NCBI GenBank assembly: GCA_937858935.1 | Contig: CALLZX010000425.1 | Location: forward strand, 1 to 46,845 | Source of the DNA: an uncultured Ignavibacteriales bacterium | GTDB lineage: Bacteria > Bacteroidota > Ignavibacteria > Ignavibacteriales > Ignavibacteriaceae | Reading direction: 5' to 3' | Length of the DNA stretch: 46,845 nt | Shown: positions 16,194 to 34,288 of the stretch, piece after piece | How positions within the stretch are numbered: the stretch's first letter is position 1 | Layout: every line of letters starts with the position of its first letter | Translations under genes and position numbers: made by a program | Notes under the pieces: generated by a model | What the model was told of the DNA's origin: nothing | Seen by the model: the letters and a program-made list of their open reading frames with translations, nothing else | The model's database searches: none

Positions 16194-18629
16194 GTGAACA
16201 GAAATACAATAGTTAAAATATCAGTTGCTTTACTTACTACAGCCATTCTTTTTACATTTCGAGTAATTCCAAATACGTTTGATTCCTTTTTAATTTCTTC
16301 ATTTAATCTGATTTCAGGTGAAAAAGTACCTGATTCTTCTATAGTCATTATCCACATTACTTCAGAAGACATTGAGCAACTAGGTCCGTGGCCATTAAAG
16401 AGAAGTTATTATGCTTTGTTATTAAATAATCTTTCGTCCTATCAGGTAAAGAAAATAGGACTTGAAATATTTTTAAGTGCAAAGTTTGTTTCACAAGCTG
16501 TTTATGATAATGTACTTCAGAGAGAAATCAGCAGAGCAAATAATGTTGTTCTTAGTTCGCTTGCAGGAAGTTTAGAAGAAATTAACGATCATTTTATTAC
16601 AGACTCATTAAGTTATCCAAGTCCAAAACTAATTAATGATCAGATTCCAACGGGGCATATTAATATTATCCACAACAATGGCATTGAGATACCTTTACAA
16701 ATTTCGAATCGATCTATAAATGAATCTGCATTTAGTTTAAGCCTAGCGGGTATACACAATAGTTATCCTAAAAAGATTAAAATTAATTTCGTTTCAGGAT
16801 GGAAGAAGTTTAAGAATTATTCTCTTGTGGATTATTTTCAATTAGTACAAGAAAATGAACGTGAACTTCTGCAATTAAAGAACAAAATCATTTTAGTCGG
16901 AATAAGTGATCCTCAATTATCATCTGTGTTTAAAACAGAATTTGATGAAAAATTACCGGGAGTTGCATTACATGCTTTTGCGTTAGACAATCTATTAAAT
17001 GATAGATTTATTAACGACTCCTATTACAACTTATCAATTTATGCGTTTCTATTATTTATCATTCTTTTAATAATATTTCTAAAGAAACAAAAGCGGATTC
17101 TTATTTTATATCCTATAATATTTTCAGTCTCACTGTTAGTCTATTTCTTAATTTATAGACTATGGTTTTTAGAATTAGCTTTCTCATTTTTGTTAATTCC
17201 CTTGACATTAATGTTTATTGCCAATATATCTTTCATACTTATTGATAAGAGAAACCAATTAACAGGATATTATAATGAATCAGAGTTATTCAAAAAACTT
17301 TTATCTGAAAAGGAAAAAGAACTTACCCGTATACAGAATGTTCTTAATCAATCATCAACGCAAAACACTGGACAATTATTGGAAAAAATTGAAGTGTTAA
17401 AAGATGACATTGAAAAATTAAGAGAGAATGAAAATGATCAGATACCAGCAGAAGTTAGTGACGCAGTAGTTGAACAGAATTTCTCAGGCTTAGTATTTAA
17501 ATCTGCGGGAATGAAAAATGTTGTGGAATTGATAAATAAATCTGCTCCTACAGATGCTTCAATAATGATAACAGGTGAAAGCGGTACAGGAAAAGAGCTA
17601 GTTGCAAAAGCAATTCATTCCCTTAGTAATAGGAATGATAAAAAGTTTGTTGCCGTTAATTGTGCTGCTCTTACAGAATCACTTCTTGAAAGCGAATTAT
17701 TCGGACATGTGAAAGGTGCATTTACAGGAGCCATTATTGATAAGATTGGAAAGTTTGAAGCAGCAGATAAAGGAACTATATTTTTAGATGAAATTGGTGA
17801 AACAACGGAGAATTTTCAGGTAAAACTTTTGCGCGTGATTCAATCTGGTGAGTATGATAAAGTTGGTTCAGTAAATACATCATTTACTGATGTACGGGTT
17901 ATTTCTGCTACCAATAAAGAGCTTAAAGTGCTTATTAAGGAAAAGAAATTTAGAGAAGATCTTTTTTATAGATTAAATGTGATCAATATTAACATTCCAT
18001 CATTGCGTGAAAGAAAAGAAGATATTGAACCAATCGCAAGATATTTTTGCGAAGTTGATGATAAAAAATACCATCTCTCACTGGCAGCTCTAAAATCTTT
18101 GAATGATTACGATTGGCCAGGTAATGTTAGAGAACTGGAATCAGTTATCCGAAGAGCAAAAGTATTTTGTGAAGCGGGGAATAGAAGTTTAATTCAATTA
18201 AATGATTTACCCGATGAAATTGTAAAAAGTGTAAAACTTAATTTTGAGGATTTAGTCATTGAATCCCTACGAAACAAGAAGTTCACACATTCCTCTATAA
18301 ATGAAACTGCAAGAGAACTCGGTAATGTGAGCCGAACTCTTGTTGCAGAAAACCTTAGAGGACTATCGTTAAAAATATTAGTTGAAAATAATTTTGATGA
18401 AATGAAATCGATTATTACCATTTCTAAAGATGAGAATGATGAAGTATTAACAAGAGTAAAATCAAAATTGGATACCTGGCTGGTAAATATTCAAAAAGAC
18501 GTTGAGTTGAATAAATCTTTATCATTCAACGAAATAAAACTAAAACTTAATTCTAAGTATAAAAACCTTCCACAAAAATATCATACCTATCTCGATGAAG
18601 TGATTAGACATATTATTAATAAGAATTAA
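16194..18629 (+). CDS. Membrane-bound CHASE2-sigma54 AAA+ regulator
   Basis: This 811-aa protein joins an extracytoplasmic CHASE2 sensor to a sigma54-activator ATPase. The CHASE2 region covers about residues 25-270 (IVIIHITSEDIEQLGPWPLKR is split across its start). Three hydrophobic helices occupy about 278-345, followed by a coiled-coil linker (360-420). The AAA+ domain (about 435-660) has Walker A GESGTGKE (near 460), the sigma54-contact loop GAFTGA (near 507) and Walker B GTIFLDEIGE (near 526). A helix-turn-helix-like segment SINETARELGNVSRTLV lies near 701, then a 90-aa tail of unknown fold. The start is GTG at 16194, with a poor ribosome binding site. It converges with the FecR-like gene, 2 bases away. 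Confidence 0.85.
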   Translation: MNRNTIVKISVALLTTAILFTFRVIPNTFDSFLISSFNLISGEKVPDSSIVIIHITSEDIEQLGPWPLKRSYYALLLNNLSSYQVKKIGLEIFLSAKFVSQAVYDNVLQREISRANNVVLSSLAGSLEEINDHFITDSLSYPSPKLINDQIPTGHINIIHNNGIEIPLQISNRSINESAFSLSLAGIHNSYPKKIKINFVSGWKKFKNYSLVDYFQLVQENERELLQLKNKIILVGISDPQLSSVFKTEFDEKLPGVALHAFALDNLLNDRFINDSYYNLSIYAFLLFIILLIIFLKKQKRILILYPIIFSVSLLVYFLIYRLWFLELAFSFLLIPLTLMFIANISFILIDKRNQLTGYYNESELFKKLLSEKEKELTRIQNVLNQSSTQNTGQLLEKIEVLKDDIEKLRENENDQIPAEVSDAVVEQNFSGLVFKSAGMKNVVELINKSAPTDASIMITGESGTGKELVAKAIHSLSNRNDKKFVAVNCAALTESLLESELFGHVKGAFTGAIIDKIGKFEAADKGTIFLDEIGETTENFQVKLLRVIQSGEYDKVGSVNTSFTDVRVISATNKELKVLIKEKKFREDLFYRLNVININIPSLRERKEDIEPIARYFCEVDDKKYHLSLAALKSLNDYDWPGNVRELESVIRRAKVFCEAGNRSLIQLNDLPDEIVKSVKLNFEDLVIESLRNKKFTHSSINETARELGNVSRTLVAENLRGLSLKILVENNFDEMKSIITISKDENDEVLTRVKSKLDTWLVNIQKDVELNKSLSFNEIKLKLNSKYKNLPQKYHTYLDEVIRHIINKN

Positions 18630-18631
18630 GA

Positions 18632-19315
18632 CTATTTGTTAATCAGTTTTTTATTTATTTGTTCAAGTTTTTCGTTAACGTGACTTTTCTGTTCACTTTT
18701 AAGTTCAAGTAATTTAATCTCAGTGTACTCATCATAAGATTCCTCATAAAGTCCGCTGCCAAATAAAAGATCTGCAAAATATATTCTGCTAACTGCATCT
18801 TTTTTTGTATCAGGATATTTTCGATATACTTCTTTTGAAGCAACAATCGCTGACTCTTTCATACCATTTTCAGCTAACTGTTTAGCGCCATTTAGCCGCT
18901 TCATTCCAAAATCATTGGAGTTTAAAGTTGAAAGAGTTTCCTTCGAAATCTTATCTCCATAAACACCAGTATTATCAGATTTTTCATTTCCTTTTTTTCT
19001 TGGAGTGTTCATTACATTTTCCATAGCCAACGCAAGTATTAATTCATCCAAAGTCATATTTTTTATATTTGCCACAGTAATTGCTGATGATTCTTTTAAT
19101 GTAAATGATAAATCATTACCCTTAATTAAAACTGAAGAATTTTTATCAGTACTAACAACATCATTTTCATTTAAGATCATTTTAGATTTGACTTGCTGCC
19201 AAGTGTTGCTGTTACTCGATAACATTTTAACATTCCCATTAAGTTTCTCAACTTGAAATGTTTGAGAGTGAATAACAGAAACTGAGAATAACAGAACTAA
19301 TATATACTTTTTCAT
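18632..19315 (-). CDS. FecR-like exported protein with helical repeat tail
   Basis: The 227-aa product has a signal peptide (1-17, ending VIHSQ) and an N-terminal FecR-like beta domain (about 20-85). In this domain a secreted protein holds a GNV..L...W..V..... pattern, followed by the NDVVSTDKNSSVLI segment typical of FecR domains. The C-terminal half (about 120-227) is helical and fits one or two TPR-like repeats (AENGMKESAIVASKEVYRKY, then ALLFGSGLYEESYDEY-like). It is the last gene of a minus-strand unit, 17 bases after the barrel/transglutaminase gene. The classical FecR anti-sigma function is not implied; there is no cytoplasmic domain. Confidence 0.65.
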   Translation of the reverse strand: MKKYILVLLFSVSVIHSQTFQVEKLNGNVKMLSSNSNTWQQVKSKMILNENDVVSTDKNSSVLIKGNDLSFTLKESSAITVANIKNMTLDELILALAMENVMNTPRKKGNEKSDNTGVYGDKISKETLSTLNSNDFGMKRLNGAKQLAENGMKESAIVASKEVYRKYPDTKKDAVSRIYFADLLFGSGLYEESYDEYTEIKLLELKSEQKSHVNEKLEQINKKLINK

Positions 19316-19332
19316 TTTCTTACCTTTAACGG

Positions 19333-21315
19333 TTAATAAACATCTATAATTTGCACATCGCCTTTAACTAAACCAAAGTTGTTAATTGCTTCAGTTTGGA
19401 ATTTGTCCGAGGCAATCGCCCAAGCACTTTCAAAATCTGATAGGGAAGTGGTTTCAACGGGAATCCATACTTCATCATTGCCGGATTCATTTTTTCTAAT
19501 AAAATACTTTGTGTCATTTTCAGAAATTAATTCTGCCTGCTGTGGTGAAAGTTTAGTATTAAATATAATGTTGACATGCCTTAAGACATCATTTGATTTA
19601 TAATCAACTAAAGCTGTTTCAATACCAATACTTTCAAGAAATGAACTATAACAAACGCTAAGATCATCGCAATCACCACCTTTTAATTCAAGTGTTTGGC
19701 TGGGATATTGAACATACTCAGCAGAAGCTCTTGGATCAGAAGTATATGTTAGATTTTCAATGAATGAATTGAATATAATTCTGGCTTTATAAAAATCGGA
19801 TATAACATTTGCAAGTGTATCTATTTCCGATTTATGTTTAGCTAATATCGCTTTTGAATACTTAACTGAAAAATCCATATAACGTTGAATGAAATATCTC
19901 AAATTCTTAACATTTCCATCCCATGCATTTATTCCATTAATAAGCAAAGCCTTTTGATATTCATCATCAAAATCATCATTCACAGTAAGTAAATAAAAGT
20001 TTGCGTATGTAATTTCCGGATTTACGCCAGTGTAGGATTCTGAAATAACAGCATAATAATTTACTTCACTTGTGTCATAAGGAAGAATTGAGATTATAGG
20101 AGATTGAAGTTTTTCTTCACTAATTCGATTAATTACCATAACAGGCTTAACATCTATTCGTTCATTTGTAAGATTTACAACTTTGGCAGTTGCTATAGGA
20201 TTATCAAGGTACTTATCATTTAAAGCAGGATAAATATTTTGATTTATTTCTACACCCAGAAACTTTACACGCTGGTCAACAAGTGTATTTAATTTAAAAT
20301 TTGTAGTTAAAAGAAGTTTATCATAACTGTATTTATTGTTTATAATATTTGAAATACCATTCTCCTTAAATTCAGAATAACTTCCAGAGTTATTTCTATC
20401 ACTAAAATATTTTATATAAGTAAGCGAAAGATCTAAATATTTTGATGTGAATACTGCTGCCGGAATTATTCCTGCTATAAATGGCTCTTGTTCTTTATCG
20501 TGAAAAGCTGAAACTGAAAATCCAATTTTATTTTTATTAAAATCAACCAAATAGGACATACCGCCTAAAAAAGAATTATTAGTTTCTAAGCTGAGATGTA
20601 AGTTCAAATCATTAACTGGCGAATAATTGATTCCTGCAAAAACGGCTTTCTCAGTTCTAATTTCGAAATCACTATTTTCTTCGTTGGTAATTTCGCTGCC
20701 AAAAGTTAATAGATTAATCGAACCGAAATTAAAAGTCAATGTTTCTGATGTTTTCCAAACAAAGCCAATATCAGTTTTCCATATGTCAGAATTATCTAAT
20801 TCTGTTTCCCTAACAAAATAAATCGTATCAGAAAATATTGCAGTTACATTTTCGTTTGTAAAATCCTGTTTGAAATATCTCAAATTTAGTCCAAGGCTAA
20901 ATTCTTTATTCACACTGTAAGAATAACCCAAACCGAATAGCTCTTTATATTGAAACTTTGATTCCAGTGTTATTGGCTCAGTATTGTTATATGGAATTGC
21001 TTCACCAGATTTGAATATAAATTCTTTTTGATATCCGGGTGTATACCGAAGAGATATAAAATGTGAACCAAATGTTTTTGCTGCAGTTACCTGGTATAAA
21101 TTACTTGAAACTGATGACGCGAACTCACCACCATAAGTGAAGGAAAAACCCCAATCTTTTATAACAGAATAATTTGAGATGTTGTATTCAAATGAATTCA
21201 ATGATGTAAAAGATTCACTTGAAATTCCATACACACCGTTAAGCCCAAAAGATGTTTGGCCTGATCCAGAAACAATTGAAAGCATAACCAAACCTGTGAT
21301 AAAAATTATTCTCAA
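19333..21315 (-). CDS. Outer-membrane barrel-like protein fused to a transglutaminase-like domain
   Basis: This 660-aa protein has a signal peptide (1-19, ending SGSGQ). Residues about 20-320 are rich in alternating aromatic strands (GLGYSYSVNKEFSLGLNLRY is a typical example), suggesting an outer-membrane beta barrel of the PorV/conserved-barrel type. A central beta domain (about 325-450) follows. The C-terminal part (about 450-640) matches a transglutaminase-like cysteine fold: GGDCDDLSVCYSSFL with Cys549, then LRHVNIIF supplying His and VWIPVETT supplying the acidic member. The start ATG overlaps the stop of the upstream lipoprotein gene by 4 bases. Enzyme activity is not established; many such domains act in peptide-bond cleavage or are non-catalytic. 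Confidence 0.7.
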   Translation of the reverse strand: MRIIFITGLVMLSIVSGSGQTSFGLNGVYGISSESFTSLNSFEYNISNYSVIKDWGFSFTYGGEFASSVSSNLYQVTAAKTFGSHFISLRYTPGYQKEFIFKSGEAIPYNNTEPITLESKFQYKELFGLGYSYSVNKEFSLGLNLRYFKQDFTNENVTAIFSDTIYFVRETELDNSDIWKTDIGFVWKTSETLTFNFGSINLLTFGSEITNEENSDFEIRTEKAVFAGINYSPVNDLNLHLSLETNNSFLGGMSYLVDFNKNKIGFSVSAFHDKEQEPFIAGIIPAAVFTSKYLDLSLTYIKYFSDRNNSGSYSEFKENGISNIINNKYSYDKLLLTTNFKLNTLVDQRVKFLGVEINQNIYPALNDKYLDNPIATAKVVNLTNERIDVKPVMVINRISEEKLQSPIISILPYDTSEVNYYAVISESYTGVNPEITYANFYLLTVNDDFDDEYQKALLINGINAWDGNVKNLRYFIQRYMDFSVKYSKAILAKHKSEIDTLANVISDFYKARIIFNSFIENLTYTSDPRASAEYVQYPSQTLELKGGDCDDLSVCYSSFLESIGIETALVDYKSNDVLRHVNIIFNTKLSPQQAELISENDTKYFIRKNESGNDEVWIPVETTSLSDFESAWAIASDKFQTEAINNFGLVKGDVQIIDVY

Positions 21316-22223
21316 GGAATGTCTACAATAATTGTGTGAATGCTTTGTGAACTAACATAAAGTTCAGTATTCTGAACTTGTACTAACTTATCGTACTTTC
21401 TAACAAAGGTAAGTGATATTTTATTAAACCTATCACGTGGAATATTTTTTAAAATTGAATTTGGAATTATAAGTGTTCCATCATCTTTTGTTTTAATCCT
21501 AAAAAAAGGGACTACCTGTTGATTAGAATTTTTAACTCCGCCTAGAATAATTGAAAAATTATTTACGTACTCAGCATTCCATAATAGTTCAGCATTAAAT
21601 TTATTCTGATTATTCAATTTAACCAGTCTAACACTGCCAGTTAATTCTTTGGGCGTTGCTATATCAAAACCTGATGGTTGACCAATAAATGGATCATAAG
21701 TGAAAGAAATTGTTGAATTATATGGATAAATAAACGGATCATTAAATGATCTGCCATTTACATTAAACAATTCATATTTTTTTCCTAAAACGGTATCAAT
21801 CAAAACTCCTTCTTCTCTGTAACGAACACGATAATTAGTTATTCTAGCTGTAACATCGTTAAACTTTATTATTCCAGGTACTATTGTGTTGTATCCAAGA
21901 ATAATTCCTCTTGGTGACTTAAAGGGTTTTGTTTTATCAAACAATAGTGTTTGAGCGCTTGAGATATTATCTGTGTGACCATTTCGAGTTAGTTTGATTC
22001 CACTTAAAGAAACGATACTCGCATAATTCCTCAAATCTTCTGTAACTCCGCTAGTATCAAATCCATTTGAGTAAAATTCATTATCAATTTCTTTGCTAAT
22101 TATTTCTACATCCAAATTTTCGGATTCATTTGGATCATTTATCAGTTCTGTGGGTCCAGGTTTATCACATCCAGGATAAATAAATGTGAATACGACTAAT
22201 ATGTAAAAAATATATTTTCTCAT
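21312..22223 (-). CDS. Lipoprotein of unknown function, first gene of the barrel/FecR unit
   Basis: I do not recognise this protein. Starting at the ATG at 22223 it has a clean lipoprotein signal (MRKYIFYILVVFTFIYPGC), so the Cys is at residue 19. A longer frame back to a TTG at 22259 adds 12 polar residues and has no better ribosome binding site, so the ATG is preferred. The mature part is about 285 aa, beta-rich, with no enzyme motif and no cysteine. It may form two or three immunoglobulin-like domains (segments around GIKLTRNGHTDN and ELLWNAEYVNNFSIILGG). The stop overlaps the barrel/transglutaminase start (ATGA), so the two are translationally coupled. Confidence 0.62.
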   Translation of the reverse strand: MRKYIFYILVVFTFIYPGCDKPGPTELINDPNESENLDVEIISKEIDNEFYSNGFDTSGVTEDLRNYASIVSLSGIKLTRNGHTDNISSAQTLLFDKTKPFKSPRGIILGYNTIVPGIIKFNDVTARITNYRVRYREEGVLIDTVLGKKYELFNVNGRSFNDPFIYPYNSTISFTYDPFIGQPSGFDIATPKELTGSVRLVKLNNQNKFNAELLWNAEYVNNFSIILGGVKNSNQQVVPFFRIKTKDDGTLIIPNSILKNIPRDRFNKISLTFVRKYDKLVQVQNTELYVSSQSIHTIIVDIP

Positions 22224-22296
22224 CTTTTTGAACTTACTATTACTTGTTAGCTTTTTCAATTAAAATATTCTTAATCTTAATTTACAAAAACATAAA

Positions 22297-22327
22297 CAAA
22301 CCCAATTTCTGTAAGAAATTGGGTTTG
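22297..22327 (-). terminator. Minus-strand intrinsic terminator after the 317-aa lipoprotein gene
   Basis: A perfect 13-bp stem (22297-22309 CAAACCCAATTTC with 22315-22327 GAAATTGGGTTTG) closes a 5-base loop. On the minus strand it is followed by a T-rich run containing TTTTT, as in a terminator. It separates the lipoprotein gene at 22348 from the downstream three-gene unit. Confidence 0.85.
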
Positions 22328-22347
22328 TAAATCAGATCAACAAAGTT

Positions 22348-23301
22348 TTATGGTCTTACAAAGTAGGGAACACCCCAAGATTCCATTTCAACCGGAGTTG
22401 AGTCATCGTATACAACCTGTTTAGGCATTGCATTTATAATTGCGTGAAAGAATCCGGGAAACTGATGTGCAACAAAAGTCTGCTCATATACTTTTTCATA
22501 AATGTTACCATTAGCATTTGAAGAAATCAAATCAAATTTTCTTTTAAATCTGTGCATTCCAAATCTATCAGCTCCAAATGTTAGTGTAACAAAATCTGTA
22601 TCTGCATAGGCACTGTTCAATTCAACTCTCAAAAGTACCTCACCTCCTTGATTAATTACAGGAACATGATGCCATCTCCACCACTGACCCCAATTTCTTA
22701 CAAGGTAATAGTCATTAGGTGAATTTATGACAAGAGTATCTCCATTGGGTAAAAATGCAGTGAATTTGTTTATATCAATATTTGGATTTAGTGTTCCGCC
22801 TTCTGGTAATGATATCGCAGCAATTTTCCAGTTTCTTTCAGGAAACTTTGTATTTGCTATCTTTACAAAAACAACATTTCTTGTAACCACTGATGTAAAA
22901 ACTTTTTTAATTAATGTATCAGGATTTGTTGCATTTGGATCATACGATCCTTTAATAGATAATACACCTTCAAAAGTTTTCGTAACTAATCCGTAAGCTG
23001 TATCACCATCAAATGTTACAGAAATGGTCCTATTAACCAATCTCATTTTATGACCAACTCTGAAGGGATAAATCTCAGTATTTACTTTATAAAGATCCAT
23101 ATCACCGCCTTCATCATAATTCGGTTCGAAAGACATAAGTACTGAATCTTCATCTGCGAGTTTTTGAAGAGCTTGCTGATCCGTTGTAATTTCGTCAGTC
23201 GATTGAACTGTCATATCGTCCTGACAGCCGACGAAAAAAGACATTATTACCAAAAGCAGCATAGGAAAAAAGTTTTTCTTCACGAATTCTGATGTTTTCA
23301 T
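22348..23301 (-). CDS. Lipoprotein of unknown function, separately transcribed
   Basis: This 317-aa product is not recognised. It carries a lipoprotein signal (about residues 8-26, hydrophobic LLLVIMSFFVGC, Cys at 26). The mature protein is beta-rich. A first half with TISVTFDGDTAYGLVTKT precedes a segment rich in aromatics and His (NWGQWWRWHHVPVI, about 204-217). A second half contains LTFGADRFGMHRFKRKF. The ATG at 23301 is backed by AGGAGCT (minus strand, 23307-23313) 5-7 bases away. A strong terminator ends it and the 246-base upstream region holds repeated elements, so it is probably a single-gene unit with its own control. Confidence 0.62.
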   Translation of the reverse strand: MKTSEFVKKNFFPMLLLVIMSFFVGCQDDMTVQSTDEITTDQQALQKLADEDSVLMSFEPNYDEGGDMDLYKVNTEIYPFRVGHKMRLVNRTISVTFDGDTAYGLVTKTFEGVLSIKGSYDPNATNPDTLIKKVFTSVVTRNVVFVKIANTKFPERNWKIAAISLPEGGTLNPNIDINKFTAFLPNGDTLVINSPNDYYLVRNWGQWWRWHHVPVINQGGEVLLRVELNSAYADTDFVTLTFGADRFGMHRFKRKFDLISSNANGNIYEKVYEQTFVAHQFPGFFHAIINAMPKQVVYDDSTPVEMESWGVPYFVRP

Positions 23302-23419
23302 TTTTGAGCTCCTATTATTTTGTGAAATTTATTATGAACTTTTAGGAAGTATTAACGAAGAATTGTGCCAGCTGTTATTTTAATGATATCTTTAGATTTT
23401 GGATGAAAATTAAATTTTT

Positions 23420-23464
23420 CATGCAGTTTACACTGCATGGAAATCAAGCTAATTTGCATGGAAA
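23420..23464. promoter_or_regulatory. Palindrome and repeated TGCATGGAAA upstream of lipoprotein gene
   Basis: An 8-bp perfect inverted repeat (23420-23427 CATGCAGT, 23432-23439 ACTGCATG) surrounds 4 bases. The decamer TGCATGGAAA occurs twice, at 23434-23443 and 23455-23464, exactly 21 bp apart, which places both on the same face of the helix. There is no T run, so a terminator is unlikely. It lies about 120-165 bases upstream of the minus-strand lipoprotein start and could be a regulator binding site. No binding protein is identified. Confidence 0.35.
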
Positions 23465-25659: not shown

Positions 25660-26238
25660 ATGCAGGAATCCGAATTAATTAACAGGCTTAGAAATAAAGA
25701 TGAAGAAGCATTCAGAATAATTTTTAATGATAATCAAAAAAAAGTTACTAATGCATGTTATCGTTTAGTTAATGATATTGATATAGCTGAAGATTTAACT
25801 CAGGAAGTGTTCATTAAAGTATTTTCTTCATTTGAGCAGTTTAGGGGAGATTCACAATTATCAACCTGGATATACAGAATTGCAATTACAAAATCGTTAG
25901 ATCATTTAAGAGCACAGAAAAGGAAAAAACGTTTGGCTATTTTAAAATATTTTTCTGGCAATGAAGAAAAACAAATTGAGATAGAGGCTCCTGAGGACCA
26001 ACGTCCGGATGCACTTATGGATAATTCTGAGAGAATGAAAGTATTAAACGACGTACTTAATACATTACCGGAAAATCAAAGGATTGCTTTTTCACTAAGT
26101 AAATATGATGAAATGAGTTCTAAAGAAATTGCTGAAGTATTAGCAACCACTGTTTCTGCAGTTGAATCTCTAATTTATCGGGCAAAAAATAATCTTGAAA
26201 AGAAATTATATAATTATTATCGAAAACAGTTCGATTAA
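25660..26238 (+). CDS. ECF-type RNA polymerase sigma factor
   Basis: The 192-aa protein has the two-domain layout of an ECF sigma factor. Sigma2 spans about residues 20-90 (DIAEDLTQEVFIKVFSSFEQF, then STWIYRIAITKSLDHLRAQ). Sigma4 spans about 125-182 (LPENQRIAFSLSKYDEMSSK precedes the recognition helix TVSAVESLIYRAKNNL). There is no C-terminal extension. It opens a three-gene unit with a small membrane protein and a periplasmic sensor-like protein, an arrangement resembling CnrH-CnrY-CnrX. Such sigma factors usually respond to envelope or metal stress and often activate their own promoter; no self-promoter could be defined here. Confidence 0.92.
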   Translation: MQESELINRLRNKDEEAFRIIFNDNQKKVTNACYRLVNDIDIAEDLTQEVFIKVFSSFEQFRGDSQLSTWIYRIAITKSLDHLRAQKRKKRLAILKYFSGNEEKQIEIEAPEDQRPDALMDNSERMKVLNDVLNTLPENQRIAFSLSKYDEMSSKEIAEVLATTVSAVESLIYRAKNNLEKKLYNYYRKQFD

Positions 26239-26289
26239 TCGCAAAGATTTATAAATAACATCGTCTTATATTTTAAGGTATAATTTTAT

Positions 26290-26634
26290 ATGGATAAAAA
26301 TCAAAAAATATTGGATGAGGTAAAGAAAACCATTTCTTTACTTGATAACGTCAAAAACATTGAGCCAAATCCTTTCTTATACACACGGATTGCGACAAGG
26401 TTGGATGCTGAAGTACATAAACAGATATCTTCATCAAAAGAATTTGCTTTTAGAGTTTTACGACAATTTGTATTTGCAGTATTATTTCTATTTAATGCAT
26501 ATTCTGTTCTCTCATATTTAAGTGATGGAAGTGAAGATGAGCTAACTCGACAAACTTATATCAAAAATATTATTGCAGAATATTCTTTGGATGGTGAAAG
26601 CGATTACGTAACATATTATGAAGATAAGGATTGA
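26290..26634 (+). CDS. Small single-pass membrane protein, putative anti-sigma factor
   Basis: This 114-aa protein has an N-terminal cytoplasmic region of about 60 residues (KILDEVKKTISLLDNVKNIEPNPFLYTRIATRL), one membrane helix (about 55-76, FAFRVLRQFVFAVLFLFNAY) and a short outer tail. The cytoplasmic segment resembles the sigma-binding part of small anti-sigma factors, but the zinc anti-sigma motif HxxxCxxC is absent. Its position between the ECF sigma factor (51 bases upstream) and the Spy/CnrX-like gene (which it overlaps or abuts) is the main argument for an anti-sigma role. Function is inferred, not shown by a diagnostic motif. Confidence 0.62.
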   Translation: MDKNQKILDEVKKTISLLDNVKNIEPNPFLYTRIATRLDAEVHKQISSSKEFAFRVLRQFVFAVLFLFNAYSVLSYLSDGSEDELTRQTYIKNIIAEYSLDGESDYVTYYEDKD

Positions 26635-26636
26635 AA

Positions 26637-27158
26637 ATGGATTGGCTAGCAAAACAAAAAACTTATATTTGGCTTATTGTATTATTAATAATAATAAATC
26701 TTACAACATTAATTATTCTATGGTTTGGACGACCCGGTCAACCACCATTTAATAGGAATGAACGACCTGATACTAATAAATTCTTAAAACTTGAATTAGG
26801 ATTAAGCGATGAGCAGGAAAAAATGTTTACGCAAATTCGGAAGATACATTTTGATTCAACAGGCTCTCTCAATGAAGAATTATGGTTAAAAAGAAGATCA
26901 ATCCAGCAGGAAGCGTTTAAGGAAATTCCGGATACACAGATGGTTAATACTTTAAGTTATGAGATTGGTAAGCTACAGGAAATAAACGAAAAATTTATTT
27001 TCAATCATTTTTTGGAATTAAAAAAAGTATTGAATCGAGAGCAGTTAGTAAAATTTAAAGAGATAATTAGCAAAAAAGAAAAAAATAGACCACAACCATT
27101 TGACGGGGAAAGACAAGGCCCGCCGCCACAAGATGGTATGCCACCACCAGAGCATTAG
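26637..27158 (+). CDS. Membrane-anchored CnrX/Spy-like periplasmic sensor
   Basis: This protein of about 173 aa has one N-terminal anchor helix (about 9-32) and a periplasmic helical domain with the family signature LGLSDEQEKMFTQIRK (about 55-70). A second helix pair follows, with LNREQLVKFKEIISKK. A Pro-rich tail (GPPPQDGMPPPEH) ends it. This fits the CnrX/CpxP/Spy superfamily (heavy-metal sensor or chaperone). I place the start at ATG 26637, since AAGGA (26626-26630) is 6 bases upstream; a TTG at 26631 would overlap the previous stop. No clear metal-binding cluster is seen apart from His residues, including one at the end. Confidence 0.72.
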   Translation: MDWLAKQKTYIWLIVLLIIINLTTLIILWFGRPGQPPFNRNERPDTNKFLKLELGLSDEQEKMFTQIRKIHFDSTGSLNEELWLKRRSIQQEAFKEIPDTQMVNTLSYEIGKLQEINEKFIFNHFLELKKVLNREQLVKFKEIISKKEKNRPQPFDGERQGPPPQDGMPPPEH

Positions 27159-27193
27159 GATCAAATATTATTTAAGAAAACAAGGATTTTACA

Positions 27194-28786
27194 ATGTTTA
27201 AATTTCAAACAATTGGGTATTTTTTTATTGCATTGATATTTTTTGGCATATCGGTAAAATCTTCAGCACAAAATCCTGGAGATAATATTTTTTCAGAAAC
27301 ACAAGTCTTTAACATCAATATTAATTTTTATTATCCTAATTATTGGGATTCATTAGAGTATTACTATAATCTTGGAACGGAAATTTACATCCCAGCAGAT
27401 GTTATAGTTGAAGGAGACACTCTTATAAATGTTGGGGTAAGATTCAAAGGTAATTCATCATACAGTCATCCCAACAATAAAAAATCATTAAGATTAGGTA
27501 TTGATGAATTTGATGGTGCTTTGCGCTGGGATGGATTGAAAGGGGTTCACTTAAACAATTGTTATGGCGATCCAACTTTTATGAGAGAGAAGATTTATCT
27601 GGATTTTTGTAAAGATGCCGGAATAATTGCACCAAGAGCAAATTATGCTAAGGTTTCATTTAACGATACATTATTTGCATTTTATTCACTTATCGAGCAC
27701 GTTGATAAGATTTTTTTAAATACTCGCTTTGGAAATAAAAATGGAGATTTATTTAAAGCAGTTGATGATTTTGGAACAGCGAATTTGGTCTCAGATTTTA
27801 AATGGTACACAGCAGTTGAAGATTCTTATTACAATAGATATGAACTAAAAACAGATGGCTCGCTAACTGCGTATCCGAAACTCATCACTTTACTAGACTC
27901 TTTAAACAATGGGTCAAATGTTGAAACTACTCTGCCCATATTAATAAATCTAAGTAATCTCTACAACTCAGTAGCAGCAGATATTATTTTTGCAAATCTT
28001 GATTCTTACATAAACAGTGGCAGAAATTTTTATTTTTACTTTAATACTGCTACAAACAAAATGGAATGGGTTAAATGGGATGTTGGTTTAAGTTTTGGAG
28101 ATTTTAGCGGTGGTGTATCTAATTTTGAAAACTTAAATGCTAGTTATATTTTAAATTCAAATGAACGTCCTTTGTGGGGAAAAATTTTAAGCAACTCCGT
28201 TTTAAAAAATAACTATTTGTATTCACTTTGCTTATTGAATAAGGATTTTCTGAATACTGCTAATCTCTTTCAGCATATTGATAGTGTTGCAAATACAATT
28301 CGGAGTTTCGTTTATTCCGATACAAGGAAACAATACACAAACAATCAGTTTGAATTGAATATACTTAGTGATTTATCAATTTCCGGAGTTGGTGGAACGA
28401 CAAGAATTCCTGGTTTAAAATCTTTTTTAACTGCACGAAAAACTAGTATAAGCAATCAGTTAGCAACACTTGGTATAGATTGCTCAGGAACGGATTTAGA
28501 GGAAGAAGTTAATCCATTACCTCAGGAATTTATACTTAATCAAAACTATCCAAATCCATTTAATCCAACAACAACTATAAGTTTTTCGATAGGAAAACCG
28601 GAATTCGTAACTCTCAAAGTTTATGATCTTTTAGGCAGAGAGGTTGCTGTGTTGTTTAATAATTATCTTAACCAAGGAAATTATAGATTTGATTTTAATT
28701 CTTCGCCACTTTCAAGTGGAGTGTATTTATACCGTTTACAAACTGAAAGTTTCGATCAAACCAAACAAATGATTTTATTAAAATAG
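27194..28786 (+). CDS. CotH kinase-like protein with T9SS sorting domain
   Basis: This 530-aa exported protein has a signal peptide (1-25, ending SSAQ) and a CotH-like domain (about 50-420). In Bacillus CotH is a secretory protein kinase for spore coat proteins. Motifs include VRFKGNSSYSHPNNKKSLRL near 80-100, LNNCYGDPTFMREKI, and the catalytic-region patterns NLDSYINSGRNFYFYF and WVKWDVGLSFGD. The C-terminal 85 residues (from EFILNQNYPNPFNP) are the T9SS tail with GVYLYRL and a basic end. It starts 35 bases after the sensor gene, so it may be read with the sigma factor unit. Substrate unknown. Confidence 0.85.
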   Translation: MFKFQTIGYFFIALIFFGISVKSSAQNPGDNIFSETQVFNININFYYPNYWDSLEYYYNLGTEIYIPADVIVEGDTLINVGVRFKGNSSYSHPNNKKSLRLGIDEFDGALRWDGLKGVHLNNCYGDPTFMREKIYLDFCKDAGIIAPRANYAKVSFNDTLFAFYSLIEHVDKIFLNTRFGNKNGDLFKAVDDFGTANLVSDFKWYTAVEDSYYNRYELKTDGSLTAYPKLITLLDSLNNGSNVETTLPILINLSNLYNSVAADIIFANLDSYINSGRNFYFYFNTATNKMEWVKWDVGLSFGDFSGGVSNFENLNASYILNSNERPLWGKILSNSVLKNNYLYSLCLLNKDFLNTANLFQHIDSVANTIRSFVYSDTRKQYTNNQFELNILSDLSISGVGGTTRIPGLKSFLTARKTSISNQLATLGIDCSGTDLEEEVNPLPQEFILNQNYPNPFNPTTTISFSIGKPEFVTLKVYDLLGREVAVLFNNYLNQGNYRFDFNSSPLSSGVYLYRLQTESFDQTKQMILLK

Positions 28787-28818
28787 TTCTAATCATTACA
28801 TTATAAAGAAGGGTAAAA

Positions 28819-30612
28819 ATGCGAGGAAATAAACATTCCTACCTTAATACAAAAGTGCTTTTAATAGTTATTGTTCTTCTACTACCAGCATCTATAATAC
28901 CGCAAGCATATAATGGTTACACTTTGTTTAGTCAAAATAATTCACGCTATAGTTATTTAGTGGATATGAGCAACACCATTGTACATAGCTGGAATCATAC
29001 AAAAACCGGTGGTTACTCTTGTTATCTTTTACCTGATGGAGCATTAATGCGTTCAGCTGTATCAAGTAATTCTCAAATCAATGGTGGCGGAGCTACTGGT
29101 ATCGTGCAAAAAATTGCATGGGATGGAAGTTTGTTATGGGAGTATTCTTATAGCAGTTCAACATACCGAACTCATCATGATATAGAACCATTACCTAACG
29201 GAAATGTATTGCTTATTGCCTGGGAAGTTAAAACTGCAGCTCAATGTGTTGCAGCAGGATTAAATCATAGTGCTACATTATGGCCAGATCATATTATAGA
29301 AGTACAGCCTGTTGGCACTAATGGTGGAACAATTGTTTGGAAATGGCATTTCTGGGATCACTTAATACAGGATTATGATGCAACAAAATTAAACTATGGT
29401 GTTGTCGCTCAACATCCTGAATTGTTGGATATTAATGTTGGAAGTACTTCCGGAGATTGGATGCATGTAAATGGAATAAGTTATGATTCTGAAAAAGATC
29501 TTATCGTTTTTTCATCACACAATCTTGATGAATTGTATGTCATTGATCATAGCACAACAACAACAGAAGCTGCAGGCCATACTGGTGGTAATCATGGCAA
29601 GGGGGGAGATCTTCTTTATAGATGGGGGAAACCATCTAATTATGATGCTCCAGGATCGCAAATATTTAATGTTGTTCACAGTGCGATCTGGATACCCGAT
29701 TCTTTACCAGGTGGTGGAAATATAATGGCATTCAACAATCGAGAAGGACAGGGAACTTCAATGGTTGTTGAGATAACTCCTCCAACCGATACAGCAGGAA
29801 GTTTTATTTGGACTTCGGGAACAGCATTTGGTCCGGCACTGCCAATCTGGTCTTACACCGCAAGCGGATTTTATTCAAATCATCTTGGCGGATGCCAAAG
29901 ATTGCCGAATGGAAATACTTTTATTTGTGAAGCTACAAGCGGTTATATGTTTGAAGTTGATGTAAGTGGAAATGTAGTTTGGAGTTATAATCGTGGTGGA
30001 GAAATAGCACGAGCTAATCGATACGGACAAGACTATACTGGATTAATAAGTATTCCTGTTGAGTTAACATCCTTCACTGCTAATTTAGATAAAAATAATA
30101 TCCTGTTAAATTGGATCACTATTACAGAAACAAATAATTCTGGATTTGAGATTCAAAGAAGCATCGATAAATCAAATTTTGTAAAGATAGGATTTTTAAC
30201 TGGTACCGGCACTACAACTGAATTAACAAGATACAGTTATCAGGACAATGATTTAGAAAATGGTAAATACTATTATCGCCTTAAACAACTCGATTTTGAT
30301 GGAACATTTAGCTTTTCTGATGTTATTGAAGTTGAGGTGTATACAAAACTGGATTTTACATTATATCAGAATTATCCCAATCCGTTTAATCCGAATACAA
30401 CTATAAAATATCAAATACCGCTTTCATCAAAAGTAGTGTTAAAGGTATACAACATACTTGGTAAAGAAATTGCAACTTTAGTTAATGAAACAATAGAAGC
30501 TGGAACCCATTCAGTTAACTTTGATGCAAGTTCTATTTCAAGCGGAGTTTATATTTATAAAATAACAAGTGGTCAGTCTGTTCAAACAAAGCGAATGGTA
30601 CTTGTTAAATAA
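28819..30612 (+). CDS. Arylsulfotransferase-like protein with extra beta domain and T9SS tail
   Basis: This 597-aa exported protein resembles bacterial arylsulfotransferase (ASST) propeller enzymes of the Arylsulfotransferase_2 type. Its core (about 30-405) has many conserved His, for example YRTHHDIEPLPNGNVLLIAW, WMHVNGISYD, FSSHNLDELYVIDHS, VHSAIWIPD and NHLGGCQRLPNGN. A fibronectin-like module (about 412-508, starting VELTSFTANLDKNNILLNW) lies before the T9SS tail (YQNYPNPFNPNTTI ... GVYIYKI). ATG at 28819 has AAGGG 7-8 bases upstream. Its paralog at 32762 lacks the extra module. PQQ-independent sulfate transfer between phenols is the known family activity; substrates here are unknown. Confidence 0.8.
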   Translation: MRGNKHSYLNTKVLLIVIVLLLPASIIPQAYNGYTLFSQNNSRYSYLVDMSNTIVHSWNHTKTGGYSCYLLPDGALMRSAVSSNSQINGGGATGIVQKIAWDGSLLWEYSYSSSTYRTHHDIEPLPNGNVLLIAWEVKTAAQCVAAGLNHSATLWPDHIIEVQPVGTNGGTIVWKWHFWDHLIQDYDATKLNYGVVAQHPELLDINVGSTSGDWMHVNGISYDSEKDLIVFSSHNLDELYVIDHSTTTTEAAGHTGGNHGKGGDLLYRWGKPSNYDAPGSQIFNVVHSAIWIPDSLPGGGNIMAFNNREGQGTSMVVEITPPTDTAGSFIWTSGTAFGPALPIWSYTASGFYSNHLGGCQRLPNGNTFICEATSGYMFEVDVSGNVVWSYNRGGEIARANRYGQDYTGLISIPVELTSFTANLDKNNILLNWITITETNNSGFEIQRSIDKSNFVKIGFLTGTGTTTELTRYSYQDNDLENGKYYYRLKQLDFDGTFSFSDVIEVEVYTKLDFTLYQNYPNPFNPNTTIKYQIPLSSKVVLKVYNILGKEIATLVNETIEAGTHSVNFDASSISSGVYIYKITSGQSVQTKRMVLVK

Positions 30613-30626
30613 TTTGAAAGAAATAT

Positions 30627-32753
30627 ATGAAAAACAGTTTAGTAGCGTTCACATTAATTTTATTTGTTAATTTAACTTACTCACAGGATTGGTTTTGGCA
30701 AAATCCATTACCGCAAGGAAACACCATATATTCTACTTTTATGTTATCAGAAAACACTGCTTTCGCGGTGGGGGATGCCGGAACAATTCTAAAATCAATT
30801 GATGGCGCATTAAATTGGGAAAGAATTCCGGCCAATACGGATGCTTCGTTAAAATCAATAAATTTTATTGGTGATAATGGAATAATCGTTGGTGAATTTG
30901 GAGTGATATTAAAAACTACTAATACTGGGGATACTTGGAATTCTGTTTACACAGATTCAAGTATTTCACTTTGGTCAGTTTCCATATATTCATCATCAAA
31001 TGCTTGTGCAGTCGGAGAAAACTTAAGTGGAATTGGAAATGTTATTCTCTGGACAACAGATGGGGGAGTTACATGGGAACCAAAAATCACTAACTCTGAT
31101 TTCGGACTATTCTCGGTAGTTTTATTAAATCAAACAACTGCACTTGTAGCTGGTGCCAGTGAAACCATTTTAAAGACAACAGATAGCGGAACTACCTGGA
31201 CAGAAGTTAATAGCGGTTCGGTTTATAATTTATATGCTCTTGATTTTCCTAGTGATAGTATCGGGTATTGTGTAGGCAATGGTGGAATGATTTTAAAAAC
31301 TACAAACGCCGGTGATAACTGGTCAGCACAAAATAGCGGAAGTTTTAATTGGCTCAGCGATGTTGATTTTCTGGATGATAACGTTGGCTTTGCAGTTGGA
31401 TACAATGGAACCTGTCTGAAAACAACAAATGGCGGAACAGTATGGACTACTCTTACAACAAATACTATCGATTGGCTAAATACTATTTGTGCTTTTAATG
31501 AATACAAAATTTTGAGTTTAGGTGAATTTGGCGAATCAATATTAACTACGGATATGGGAACCAAGTGGGATAAAATTTCAGATGGCAATACAAGTACCAT
31601 GTTTTCAATAAAGTTCTTTAACGAAAATCTAGGATTTGCATCTGGTACAGAAGGTACTTTTTTAAAAACTACTGATGCTGGATTAAACTGGATTACAAAA
31701 ACAACAAATTCTTTTTCCTATTTATCCGATATCGATATAATTGATCGGGATAATATTTTTGTCGCATGTGATGATGGTTCTGTTCTTAGAACTACTGATT
31801 CAGGCGAAACCTGGACACCCTTAAATACAAATAATTTCAATTGGTTACACGCAGTTGAATTTACTTCGCAAGATATTGGATACGCATCAGGTTATTATGG
31901 TACATTAATAAAAACTACTGATGCTGGACTGAATTGGTCTGAGTTAAATAGTGGTACTAATACCATTTTACAAGATTTATTATTTTTGGATACGAATACA
32001 GGTTTTGCAGTTGGTGGAGATGATTATGGTGGTGCAGGAACGATAATAAAAACTACTGATGCTGGTGATACCTGGCAGTTAAAATATTCTGAAGCTGAAC
32101 AAATGATTCGATCAGTTTGTTTTATTGATTCTAATACTGGAATCGCAGTTGGAGGATTAAATACCGGTGCCGGTAGTAAAATTTTAAGAACAACCGATGC
32201 CGGAGAAACCTGGAATAATATTCCGAATGATTCTCAAAATAATTTGTATTCAGTTTATTTCACTTCTTCTTTAATTGGATATGCATGTGGTTATAACGGA
32301 ACAATCATCAAATCCACCGATGCAGGATTAACCTGGACATTACTGAATTCAGGTACAAAGAATATTCTCTATGGAAGTTATTTTACCTCTGATGAGATTG
32401 GTTATGTTACAGGTTTTGGCGGAACAATTTTAAAAACAACTACGGGGGGTGTAACTGGAATTAAATTAATGAATGATTATATGATGCCAAAGGAATATTC
32501 GCTTTTGCAAAACTATCCAAATCCATTCAACCCATCAACCACGATTCAGTTTCAAATTCCTGAACAATCCAATATAAAATTAATTGTTTATGATATTCTT
32601 GGAAAAGAAATTACCAAATTATTAGATGGAGAACTGAAAGCTGGGAATCATACTGTAAGTTTCAATGCATCATCTTTATCAAGCGGAGTATATTTTTATA
32701 GATTAATTACAAACAATGTTTCTATAACAAAACAAATGATTCTAATTAAGTAG
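30627..32753 (+). CDS. YCF48-like double propeller protein (14 repeats) with T9SS tail
   Basis: This 708-aa exported protein has a signal peptide (1-20) and then 14 repeats of about 41-46 residues. Each ends with a motif like TILKTTDAGLTW and carries a G.A.G or GFAVG strand in the middle. Such YCF48/BNR-like blades usually build 7-bladed propellers, so 14 copies suggest two propellers (about residues 25-615). The tail from LLQNYPNPFNPSTTI is a T9SS sorting domain. The DNA repeats, e.g. ACTACTGATGCTGG, are coding. It sits between the two arylsulfotransferase-like genes, 14 and 8 bases away. Likely a surface-binding or scaffold protein; ligand unknown. Confidence 0.82.
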   Translation: MKNSLVAFTLILFVNLTYSQDWFWQNPLPQGNTIYSTFMLSENTAFAVGDAGTILKSIDGALNWERIPANTDASLKSINFIGDNGIIVGEFGVILKTTNTGDTWNSVYTDSSISLWSVSIYSSSNACAVGENLSGIGNVILWTTDGGVTWEPKITNSDFGLFSVVLLNQTTALVAGASETILKTTDSGTTWTEVNSGSVYNLYALDFPSDSIGYCVGNGGMILKTTNAGDNWSAQNSGSFNWLSDVDFLDDNVGFAVGYNGTCLKTTNGGTVWTTLTTNTIDWLNTICAFNEYKILSLGEFGESILTTDMGTKWDKISDGNTSTMFSIKFFNENLGFASGTEGTFLKTTDAGLNWITKTTNSFSYLSDIDIIDRDNIFVACDDGSVLRTTDSGETWTPLNTNNFNWLHAVEFTSQDIGYASGYYGTLIKTTDAGLNWSELNSGTNTILQDLLFLDTNTGFAVGGDDYGGAGTIIKTTDAGDTWQLKYSEAEQMIRSVCFIDSNTGIAVGGLNTGAGSKILRTTDAGETWNNIPNDSQNNLYSVYFTSSLIGYACGYNGTIIKSTDAGLTWTLLNSGTKNILYGSYFTSDEIGYVTGFGGTILKTTTGGVTGIKLMNDYMMPKEYSLLQNYPNPFNPSTTIQFQIPEQSNIKLIVYDILGKEITKLLDGELKAGNHTVSFNASSLSSGVYFYRLITNNVSITKQMILIK

Positions 32754-32761
32754 GAGGCTGA

Positions 32762-34288
32762 TTGAAGTTAGGAAATAGATTTATTTTAAAAGCATTTATT
32801 TTATTAATAATAATTTTGGTCCCGGTTGAGTCATTCGCACAAGCATTTGATGGCTATACTTTATTTAGCCCGAATATGTCTCGTTATTCATATTTAGTTG
32901 ATATGAATAATCAAGTCGTTCATACGTGGACACATTCAAAGACTGGTGGATATTCCTGCTATTTGTTAGAAGATGGATCTCTAATGAGATCTGCAGAATC
33001 TAGTAACTCACAATTAAATGGTGGAGGAGCTGCAGGAATAATTCAAAAAATAAGCTGGACCGGAAACGTGTTATGGGAGTATACTTATAGTAGTTCTACA
33101 TATCGTTCTCATCATGATTTTGCACCTATGCCGAATGGAAATGTTCTATTGATCGCCTGGGAAGTTAAAACTGCAACACAAGCCGTTCAATCTGGATTAA
33201 ATCATAGTGCCGTAATCTGGCCAGACCATATTGTCGAAATTCAACCTGTTGGAACTACCGGAGGAAATATTGTTTGGGAATGGCATTTCTGGGATCATCT
33301 GATTCAGGATTATAATCCTACTAAAGATAATTATGGTGTTGTCGCTAATCATCCGGAGCTTCTGGATATAAATGTTGGAAGCAGTGGACAAGGTGATTGG
33401 ACACATATAAATGGAATAAGTTATAATCCATCATTAGATCAGATTGTAATTTCTTCTCACGAACTTGATGAAATTTATGTTATCGATCATAGTACAACAA
33501 CACAAGAAGCGGCAAGTCATTTCGGAGGGAACAGCGGAAAAGGTGGAGATATTCTCTATCGATGGGGAAGGCCATCAAATTATGATGCTCCCGGCTCACA
33601 AATATATAATGTAGTTCACTGTTCTGTTTGGATTCCTGATAGTTTGGAAGGTGGTGGAAATATAATGGCATTCAATAATCGTGAGGGCCAATCTTCCTCA
33701 ATTGTTATGGAAATTGTTCCGCCGCGTGAAAACAATGGAAATTACTCCTGGACATCTGGAACAGCTTATTTACCGGCGTCAGCAAATTGGTCATATACAG
33801 CAACTGGATTTTATTCTAATCATCTTGGTGGATGCCAAAGATTACCGAATGGCAATACATTAATTATTGAATCTACTAGCGGATATTTATTTGAAGTTAA
33901 CTCTATCGGTAATGTGGTTTGGAGTTATAATCGAGGTGGAGAAGTTGCTAGAGCACAAAGATATGCTCCTGATTATCCTGGTTTGGCGATTATTTCAGAT
34001 TCAAACTCTGAAACCGAACTTCCAACAGAATATGATCTTGGTCAGAATTATCCGAATCCATTTAATCCTTCGACAAAAATTGATTTTGTAATTCCACAAA
34101 AGGATTTTGTTACAATAAAAGTATATGATTTGCTGGGAAATGAAATTGCGATTTTACTAAATGAAGAAAGAGAAAAAGGAAAACATACAGTTGAATTTAA
34201 TTCAGCACAATTATCAAGTGCAGTATATCTTTACGTAATTAATGCTGGAAATTTTATCTCTTCTAAAAAAATGATTTTTCTTAAATAA
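32762..34288 (+). CDS. Arylsulfotransferase-like protein with T9SS tail (paralog)
   Basis: This 508-aa paralog of the protein encoded at 28819 has a signal peptide (ending SFAQ), the same propeller core with YRSHHDFAPMPNGNVLLIAW, WTHINGISY, ISSHELDEIYVIDHS and NHLGGCQRLPNGN, and a T9SS tail (GQNYPNPFNPSTKI ... AVYLYVI) from about 419. It lacks the fibronectin-like module of its twin. Its start is TTG at 32762, with AGGAGG at 32752-32757 overlapping the previous stop. The first gene of the pair starts at ATG 28819. It is the last gene of the T9SS cluster and its likely terminator sits inside the convergent neighbour. Confidence 0.8.
   Translation: MKLGNRFILKAFILLIIILVPVESFAQAFDGYTLFSPNMSRYSYLVDMNNQVVHTWTHSKTGGYSCYLLEDGSLMRSAESSNSQLNGGGAAGIIQKISWTGNVLWEYTYSSSTYRSHHDFAPMPNGNVLLIAWEVKTATQAVQSGLNHSAVIWPDHIVEIQPVGTTGGNIVWEWHFWDHLIQDYNPTKDNYGVVANHPELLDINVGSSGQGDWTHINGISYNPSLDQIVISSHELDEIYVIDHSTTTQEAASHFGGNSGKGGDILYRWGRPSNYDAPGSQIYNVVHCSVWIPDSLEGGGNIMAFNNREGQSSSIVMEIVPPRENNGNYSWTSGTAYLPASANWSYTATGFYSNHLGGCQRLPNGNTLIIESTSGYLFEVNSIGNVVWSYNRGGEVARAQRYAPDYPGLAIISDSNSETELPTEYDLGQNYPNPFNPSTKIDFVIPQKDFVTIKVYDLLGNEIAILLNEEREKGKHTVEFNSAQLSSAVYLYVINAGNFISSKKMIFLK

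What the first reader, a model, noticed from the sequence alone, without database searches (positions are those of the whole stretch)
18632..22223. Coupled three-gene envelope operon of unknown function
A beta-rich lipoprotein, a barrel/transglutaminase fusion (ATGA overlap) and a FecR-like protein (17-base gap) are on one strand and all exported. None has a clear assigned function. Tight coupling suggests the products form a complex at the outer membrane. This is the best candidate here for an undescribed system.
Basis: inference. Interest (0 to 1): 0.6.

Follow-up and report, generated by a model that had tools for sequence, protein, structure and literature searches.

The report
Envelope operon with dedicated sigma-54 activator
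Three neighbouring genes of unknown function prove to be part of a conserved set of four envelope-protein genes plus their own membrane-bound gene activator; it is found in many Ignavibacteria, and its core in wider relatives, and it probably senses the state of the cell surface and switches on surface proteins in response.

Summary
The three genes are real, coupled and conserved. In 70 further Ignavibacteria-type loci the barrel/transglutaminase gene (TGB) is followed by the 'FecR-like' gene in 69/69 and preceded by the lipoprotein gene in 66/68. The unit is larger than described. A fourth gene (W22, 22348-23301, a second lipoprotein) opens the operon behind a conserved sigma-54-type promoter and paired activator site. 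A terminator-like hairpin separates W22 from the other three. The regulator is the convergent neighbour at 16194-18629, a CHASE2 sensor fused to a sigma-54 activator. Its ortholog occurs in all 31 genomes with TGB and only one without, although it is not adjacent in 17; in wider relatives CHASE2-sigma54, TGB and FECR often form one operon. TGB is a FadL/PorV-type 14-strand barrel, an Ig-like domain, and a Cys-His-Glu transglutaminase-like domain, probably periplasmic. Other genes carrying the same promoter/activator site encode type IX-secreted surface proteins. Most likely this is a transenvelope signalling module that monitors the cell surface and drives surface-protein expression. The module and its regulatory DNA are well supported; signal, chemistry and complex formation are inferred. 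'FecR' membership and the 'ATGA' detail were not confirmed. I found no description of it.

The parts
16194..18629 (+). CHASE2-sigma54 activator (811 aa): CHASE2 sensor domain, coiled-coil-like linker, sigma-54 AAA+ domain with GAFTGA loop, C-terminal helix-turn-helix-like stretch
   Evidence: PF05226 2.6e-28, PF00158 1.8e-67; ortholog in 31/31 TGB genomes and only one of 28 others; adjacent or in one operon in many relatives
18632..19315 (-).
   Evidence: PF04773 not met; follows TGB in 69/69 loci
18956..18970 (-). conserved TxxYG motif (residues 116-120) in an otherwise variable linker of FECR; candidate binding or processing site (speculative)
   Evidence: T116, Y119, G120 invariant in 25 sequences; TYG in distant homologs
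19333..21315 (-). TGB: signal peptide, 14-strand FadL/PorV-type barrel (residues 20-345), Ig-like domain (347-461), transglutaminase-like domain (to 660)
   Evidence: PF01841 in 24/25 members; AlphaFold model pLDDT 84; fold matches
19669..19671 (-). Cys549, presumed nucleophile of the transglutaminase-like domain (with His580 at 19576-19578 and Glu621 at 19453-19455)
   Evidence: invariant in 25 sequences
21312..22223 (-). LIPO: 303-aa lipoprotein, no known family
   Evidence: invariant Cys19; no Pfam family; precedes TGB in 66/68 loci
22296..22328 (-). terminator-like hairpin (dG -18.9, T-rich tail) between W22 and LIPO
   Evidence: hairpin dG <= -14 in 23/24 W22-LIPO gaps against 14% of 77 control gaps, 31/34 in further loci
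22348..23301 (-). W22: 317-aa beta-sandwich lipoprotein, first gene of the operon, predicted most abundant product
   Evidence: precedes LIPO in 59/61 loci
23355..23370 (-). sigma-54-type promoter TGGCACAATTCTTCGT (consensus of the aligned sites TGGCAYR-N5-TG)
23434..23463 (-). paired activator site TTCCATGCA-N12-TTCCATGCA (period 21 bp); in relatives mostly 89-94 nt from the first copy to the -24 element
   Evidence: strict pattern matched 8 times in 59 genomes, every time in front of W22

Best explanation
The locus is a conserved envelope-signalling and surface-display module: W22-LIPO-TGB-FECR plus the CHASE2-sigma54 activator. SHOWN by computation: conserved order; matching presence/absence of activator and TGB; a dedicated sigma-54-type promoter and paired upstream site in front of W22; a maintained hairpin after W22; TGB architecture of FadL/PorV-type barrel, Ig-like domain and transglutaminase-like domain with invariant Cys, His and Glu; the same promoter/upstream site in front of type IX-secreted surface proteins in five relatives. 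INFERRED: the CHASE2 domain reads, in the periplasm, a state reported by TGB and FECR (for example occupancy of the barrel by surface cargo, or cleavage or binding of FECR by the TG domain). This licenses the AAA+ domain to activate sigma-54 RNA polymerase at the W22 promoter. The hairpin makes W22, a surface or periplasmic lipoprotein, abundant, while LIPO-TGB-FECR are made in smaller amounts and set the sensitivity of the loop.
For: Gene order. Presence/absence: 31/31 TGB genomes carry the full-length activator and 27 of 28 others lack it, although it is not adjacent in 17; within genera g1, g37 and g39 some members have both and others neither. CHASE2-sigma54/TGB/FECR operons in families f28 and f46. 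Promoter: TGGCAY in 20/27 upstream regions against 0.83 expected; paired site plus -24 at fixed spacing in 25 of 37 further loci against 0 expected; T (83%) and G (60%) at the canonical -12 position, though not selected for. The strict upstream site occurs only in front of W22, with 0 hits for the reversed control. rpoN is in this genome. Hairpin. TGB domains. Further targets with sorting domain PF18962 in G008, G035, G045 and G048, and the start of the same motif at a truncated end in G039. Type IX cargo inside the operon in f28 and f36. Precedent: CHASE2 kinase plus FecR/LysM protein in the Burkholderia BiofilmReg operon (PMC5192318).
Against: No transcript, binding or protein data. The C of the -12 GC is not conserved. 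FECR does not meet PF04773. W22 occurs without the rest in 7 of 59 genomes, without this promoter where its upstream was read, so it is a client rather than core. G035 has the activator but no TGB or W22. Type IX cargo genes are common (143 matches in this genome, 4.7% of ORFs in the loci), so cargo next to the operon is weak evidence; only two independent cargo families carry the promoter. Neither the signal nor TG activity is known.
Confidence: 0.5

Rival explanations
1. Export/maturation machine: TGB is a specialised PorV-like shuttle whose TG domain processes or crosslinks W22 and the type IX cargo; LIPO and FECR are accessory factors, and the CHASE2-sigma54 gene merely times expression, without feedback from TGB or FECR.
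For: PorV-like barrel (NCBIfam PorV_fam 1.6e-6; Z 20.3 to PorV); regulon and operon contain type IX cargo; W22 probably made in excess; W22 relatives lie beside type IX cargo in other operons.
Against: FadL-type transporters score at least as well as PorV; the PorV_fam curated cut-off is not reached; the TG domain follows an even-stranded barrel and so should be periplasmic; it does not explain why FECR and CHASE2-sigma54 are the most conserved partners phylum-wide.
Confidence: 0.3
2. Transport operon: TGB is a FadL-type channel for a hydrophobic nutrient, W22 and LIPO are lipoproteins that capture the ligand, and CHASE2-sigma54 induces the operon when the ligand is present.
For: Best structural matches are FadL-family hydrocarbon and fatty-acid channels (CymD Z 22.6, TodX 22.0); W22 weakly resembles lipid-binding beta-sandwiches (RhoGDI, NPC2).
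Against: No catabolic or inner-membrane transport genes are conserved beside it; the fused TG domain and FECR have no role in such a system; further promoter targets are surface proteins, not enzymes.
Confidence: 0.12

Closest known systems
Burkholderia BiofilmReg operon (CHASE2 histidine kinase, FecR/LysM secreted protein, response regulator; PMC5192318)
   Same: CHASE2 membrane sensor genetically coupled to an exported FecR-type protein; affects biofilm formation
   Different: output there is a two-component pair, here a directly fused sigma-54 AAA+ activator; no barrel/TG protein and no W22 or LIPO; our FECR does not match PF04773
PorV, shuttle of the type IX secretion system
   Same: FadL-type 14-strand barrel with both ends predicted on the periplasmic side; gene linked to type IX cargo
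   Different: C-terminal Ig-like and transglutaminase-like domains; below the PorV_fam cut-off; own sigma-54 operon
LapG/LapD/LapA adhesin-release system (from own knowledge)
   Same: periplasmic transglutaminase-fold cysteine protease next to a protein with a retention-module-like N-terminus (E 0.002) and an inner-membrane sensor
   Different: no giant adhesin, no c-di-GMP receptor, TG domain fused to an outer-membrane barrel, output is sigma-54 transcription
FecA-FecR-FecI type outer-membrane signalling (from own knowledge)
   Same: an outer-membrane barrel, a periplasmic partner and a transcription activator encoded together
   Different: no TonB-dependent receptor, no ECF sigma factor, no FecR profile match

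Membership tests
FecR (PF04773) | match to the FecR profile | tested here: not met
   no hit in the window protein or 24 homologs; no hit anywhere in the genome
sigma-54 activators (bacterial enhancer-binding proteins) | sigma-54 AAA+ domain with GAFTGA-type loop | tested here: met
   PF00158 1.8e-67; GAFTGA in this protein, G[AS]FT[GN]A in homologs
sigma-54 activators (bacterial enhancer-binding proteins) | -24/-12 promoter and upstream activator sites at the target | tested here: met
   TGGCAYR-N5-TG and paired site at fixed spacing; C of the -12 element degenerate
CHASE2 sensors (PF05226) | CHASE2 domain | tested here: met
   2.6e-28, 99.8 bits
transglutaminase-like superfamily (PF01841) | profile match and Cys-His-Asp/Glu residues | tested here: met
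   24/25 members match; Cys549, His580, Glu621 invariant
transglutaminase-like superfamily (PF01841) | peptidase or transglutaminase activity | not testable with these tools
   needs biochemistry
FadL/PorV outer-membrane barrels | 14-strand barrel fold | tested here: met
   Z 22.6 to CymD, 20.3 to PorV 8gl6
PorV (NCBIfam PorV_fam) | curated cut-off of 90 bits | tested here: not met
   28 bits
LapA retention module (NF033682) | curated cut-off of 50 bits and a large adhesin | tested here: not met
   18.3 bits, 227 aa
type IX secretion machinery | needed for secretion of sorting-domain proteins | not testable with these tools
   only regulon and gene-neighbourhood links to sorting-domain proteins

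The most novel reading that the evidence does not exclude
A previously undescribed transenvelope circuit: a PorV-like barrel carrying its own periplasmic cysteine-protease/transglutaminase domain senses type IX cargo or surface status, cuts or modifies FECR at its conserved TxxYG linker, and FECR releases a CHASE2-fused sigma-54 activator that switches on one dedicated surface-protein regulon.
Probability: 0.2. Interest if true: 0.85.

Novelty: new variant of a known kind. Interest (0 to 1): 0.6.

Why it matters
It links a CHASE2 sensor, whose ligand is unknown, to a defined set of partners (TGB, FECR), a defined output (sigma-54) and a defined promoter with essentially one strong site per genome, so what CHASE2 senses becomes directly testable. 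It may also show how some type IX surface proteins are regulated in Ignavibacteria, and it assigns a promoter, a regulator and an expression logic to proteins that the searched family libraries hardly cover (three of the four operon proteins match none above cut-off).

Tried and rejected
FecR membership by Pfam: not met. A promoter directly in front of LIPO: no conserved sigma-54 element. W22 as a core component: rejected because it occurs without TGB in 7 genomes. Looser upstream-site pattern YCAKGCA-N14-YCAKGCA: too many background hits; most extra hits had no -24 element, and pattern hits outside the order looked like scattered background. Solved-structure sequence searches for FECR and LIPO gave only chance-level hits. 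Foldseek for W22 gave only generic beta-sandwich hits (RhoGDI, NPC2, RbmA). The structural list for TGB was filled by the barrel and did not test the TG domain, so its fold rests on Pfam and the invariant residues. Chance type IX linkage considered: base rate about 5%, so neighbourhood cargo is treated as weak and promoter-linked cargo as moderate evidence. Literature for CHASE2 with sigma-54, or PorV with transglutaminase, gave nothing relevant.

Full report
WHAT IS THERE. The three ORFs of the finding exist on the minus strand: LIPO 22223..21312, TGB 21315..19333, FECR 19315..18632. TTGA is the commonest junction in relatives, 19 of 30. Pfam gives only a transglutaminase core for TGB (PF01841) above cut-off and nothing for the other two. 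PF04773 FecR has no match in this protein, its homologs or the genome, so 'FecR-like' is a resemblance only; the weak hits are DUF7354 and the LapA retention module, both about E 0.002.

THE UNIT IS LARGER. TGB orthologs are present in 31 of 59 near relatives including this genome, one of them cut by a contig end. In every locus with enough flank the order is W22 > LIPO > TGB > FECR (one locus, L059, has an extra gene between W22 and LIPO). A second collection, of named genomes (Ignavibacteria, Melioribacteraceae and related MAGs), gave 70 loci, some of them the same genomes: FECR follows TGB in 69/69, LIPO precedes it in 66/68, W22 in 59/61. W22 is the gene at 22348-23301, a second lipoprotein outside the coordinates of the finding.

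THE REGULATOR. The convergent gene at 16194-18629 encodes CHASE2 (PF05226) fused to a sigma-54 AAA+ activator domain (PF00158). Orthologs matching along the protein occur in 32 of the 59 genomes: all 31 with TGB, plus G035; the next-best hits match the AAA+ domain only. The gene is adjacent in 14 of the 31 and not adjacent in 17; in eight genomes the unlinked copy follows rpoN and hslVU. Genera g1, g37 and g39 each contain species with both and species with neither. In other orders of the class the gene mostly sits directly in front of W22, and in families f28 and f46 CHASE2-sigma54, TGB and FECR are adjacent, with the TGB start mostly overlapping the CHASE2-sigma54 stop by 4 nt. The core is therefore CHASE2-sigma54/TGB/FECR; LIPO and W22 are replaceable or more recent partners.

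THE PROMOTER. In front of W22 a TGGCAY element lies within 95 nt of the start in 20 of 27 loci against 0.83 expected. Across the aligned sites (44 distinct, 42 with full flanks) the consensus is TGGCAYR-N5-TG with T 83% and G 60% at the canonical sigma-54 -12 position, though the usual C is degenerate. Upstream are two copies of YCAKGCA 21 bp apart, the first 85-94 nt before the -24 element, mostly 89-94. The pair with correct spacing was found in 25 of 37 further loci not used before, against 0 expected. The strict paired pattern matched 8 times in 59 genomes, each time in front of W22, with no match of the reversed control. rpoN is present in this genome. In this window the pair is at 23434-23463 and the -24/-12 element at 23355-23370.

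THE HAIRPIN. Between W22 and LIPO lies a strong stem-loop (22296-22328, dG -18.9) with a T-rich tail. Such hairpins, with unrelated sequences, occur in 23 of 24 W22-LIPO gaps (dG <= -14) against 14% of 77 control gaps (P = 7e-11, not corrected for relatedness), and in 31 of 34 further gaps. By analogy with other operons (general knowledge) this suggests partial termination and an excess of W22 over the downstream proteins. This is inference.

TGB. The AlphaFold model (pLDDT 84) shows a 14-strand barrel (20-345) matching FadL/TodX/CymD (Z up to 22.6) and type IX PorV (Z 20.3), then an Ig-like domain (347-461), then the TG region. Cys549, His580 and Glu621 are invariant in 25 sequences. An even number of strands puts both ends in the periplasm (inference), the compartment expected for FECR and for the CHASE2 domain.

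FURTHER TARGETS. The paired site with a -24 element also precedes a carboxypeptidase-regulatory-like protein in G008 and G035, and a second protein family in G039, G045 and G048. Four of these five carry the type IX sorting domain PF18962; the fifth is truncated at the end of the stretch read but shows the start of the same motif. Type IX cargo is also inside the f28 and f36 operons. The base rate of such genes is about 5%, so the link is suggestive: two independent promoter-linked families plus two operon contexts.

MECHANISM. Shown: a conserved module with its own activator and promoter. Inferred: TGB and FECR report an outer-membrane or surface state to CHASE2, which licenses sigma-54 transcription of W22 and surface proteins. 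Precedent for the CHASE2-FecR pairing is the BiofilmReg operon of Burkholderia (PMC5192318). A conserved TxxYG motif in the FECR linker is a candidate site for the TG domain; this is speculation. The main rival is an export/maturation machine with simple sigma-54 timing; a weaker one is a FadL-type transport operon.

NOVELTY. No paper in the searched library couples CHASE2 to sigma-54, or a PorV-type barrel to a transglutaminase; the library lacks most subscription journals. The parts are known kinds; the combination is new to me, hence 'new variant of a known kind'.

Noticed in passing
window 25660-34288: ECF sigma factor, possible anti-sigma and a small membrane-anchored protein followed by four consecutive proteins with type IX sorting domains; possibly a second surface-protein regulon.
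   Followed up: no
L186:6416-17582: In family f19 a CHASE2-adenylate/guanylate cyclase (PF00211) sits beside a TG/TPR protein and near a type IX cargo: the same CHASE2-TG association with another output.
   Followed up: partly
L192, L193, L194: W22 homologs in genomes without TGB lie in a gene cluster with a histidine kinase, response regulators, another lipoprotein and a type IX cargo, without the sigma-54 site.
   Followed up: partly
L271-L276, L278: Gammaproteobacterial MAGs encode about 1650-aa proteins with a closely related TG domain, in most of them within a conserved set of small neighbours; function unknown.
   Followed up: no
L063-L065, L067, L068, L070, L072, L074: Unlinked copies of the CHASE2-sigma54 gene follow rpoN-hslV-hslU; in most a predicted outer-membrane barrel gene (OMP_b-brl) lies directly downstream.
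   Followed up: partly
G035 (L063, L082): This genome keeps the activator and a type IX cargo with the full promoter but has no detectable TGB or W22: a natural test of activator function without TGB.
   Followed up: partly
whole genome G000: 143 matches to the type IX sorting domain PF18962, a large surface proteome.
   Followed up: no
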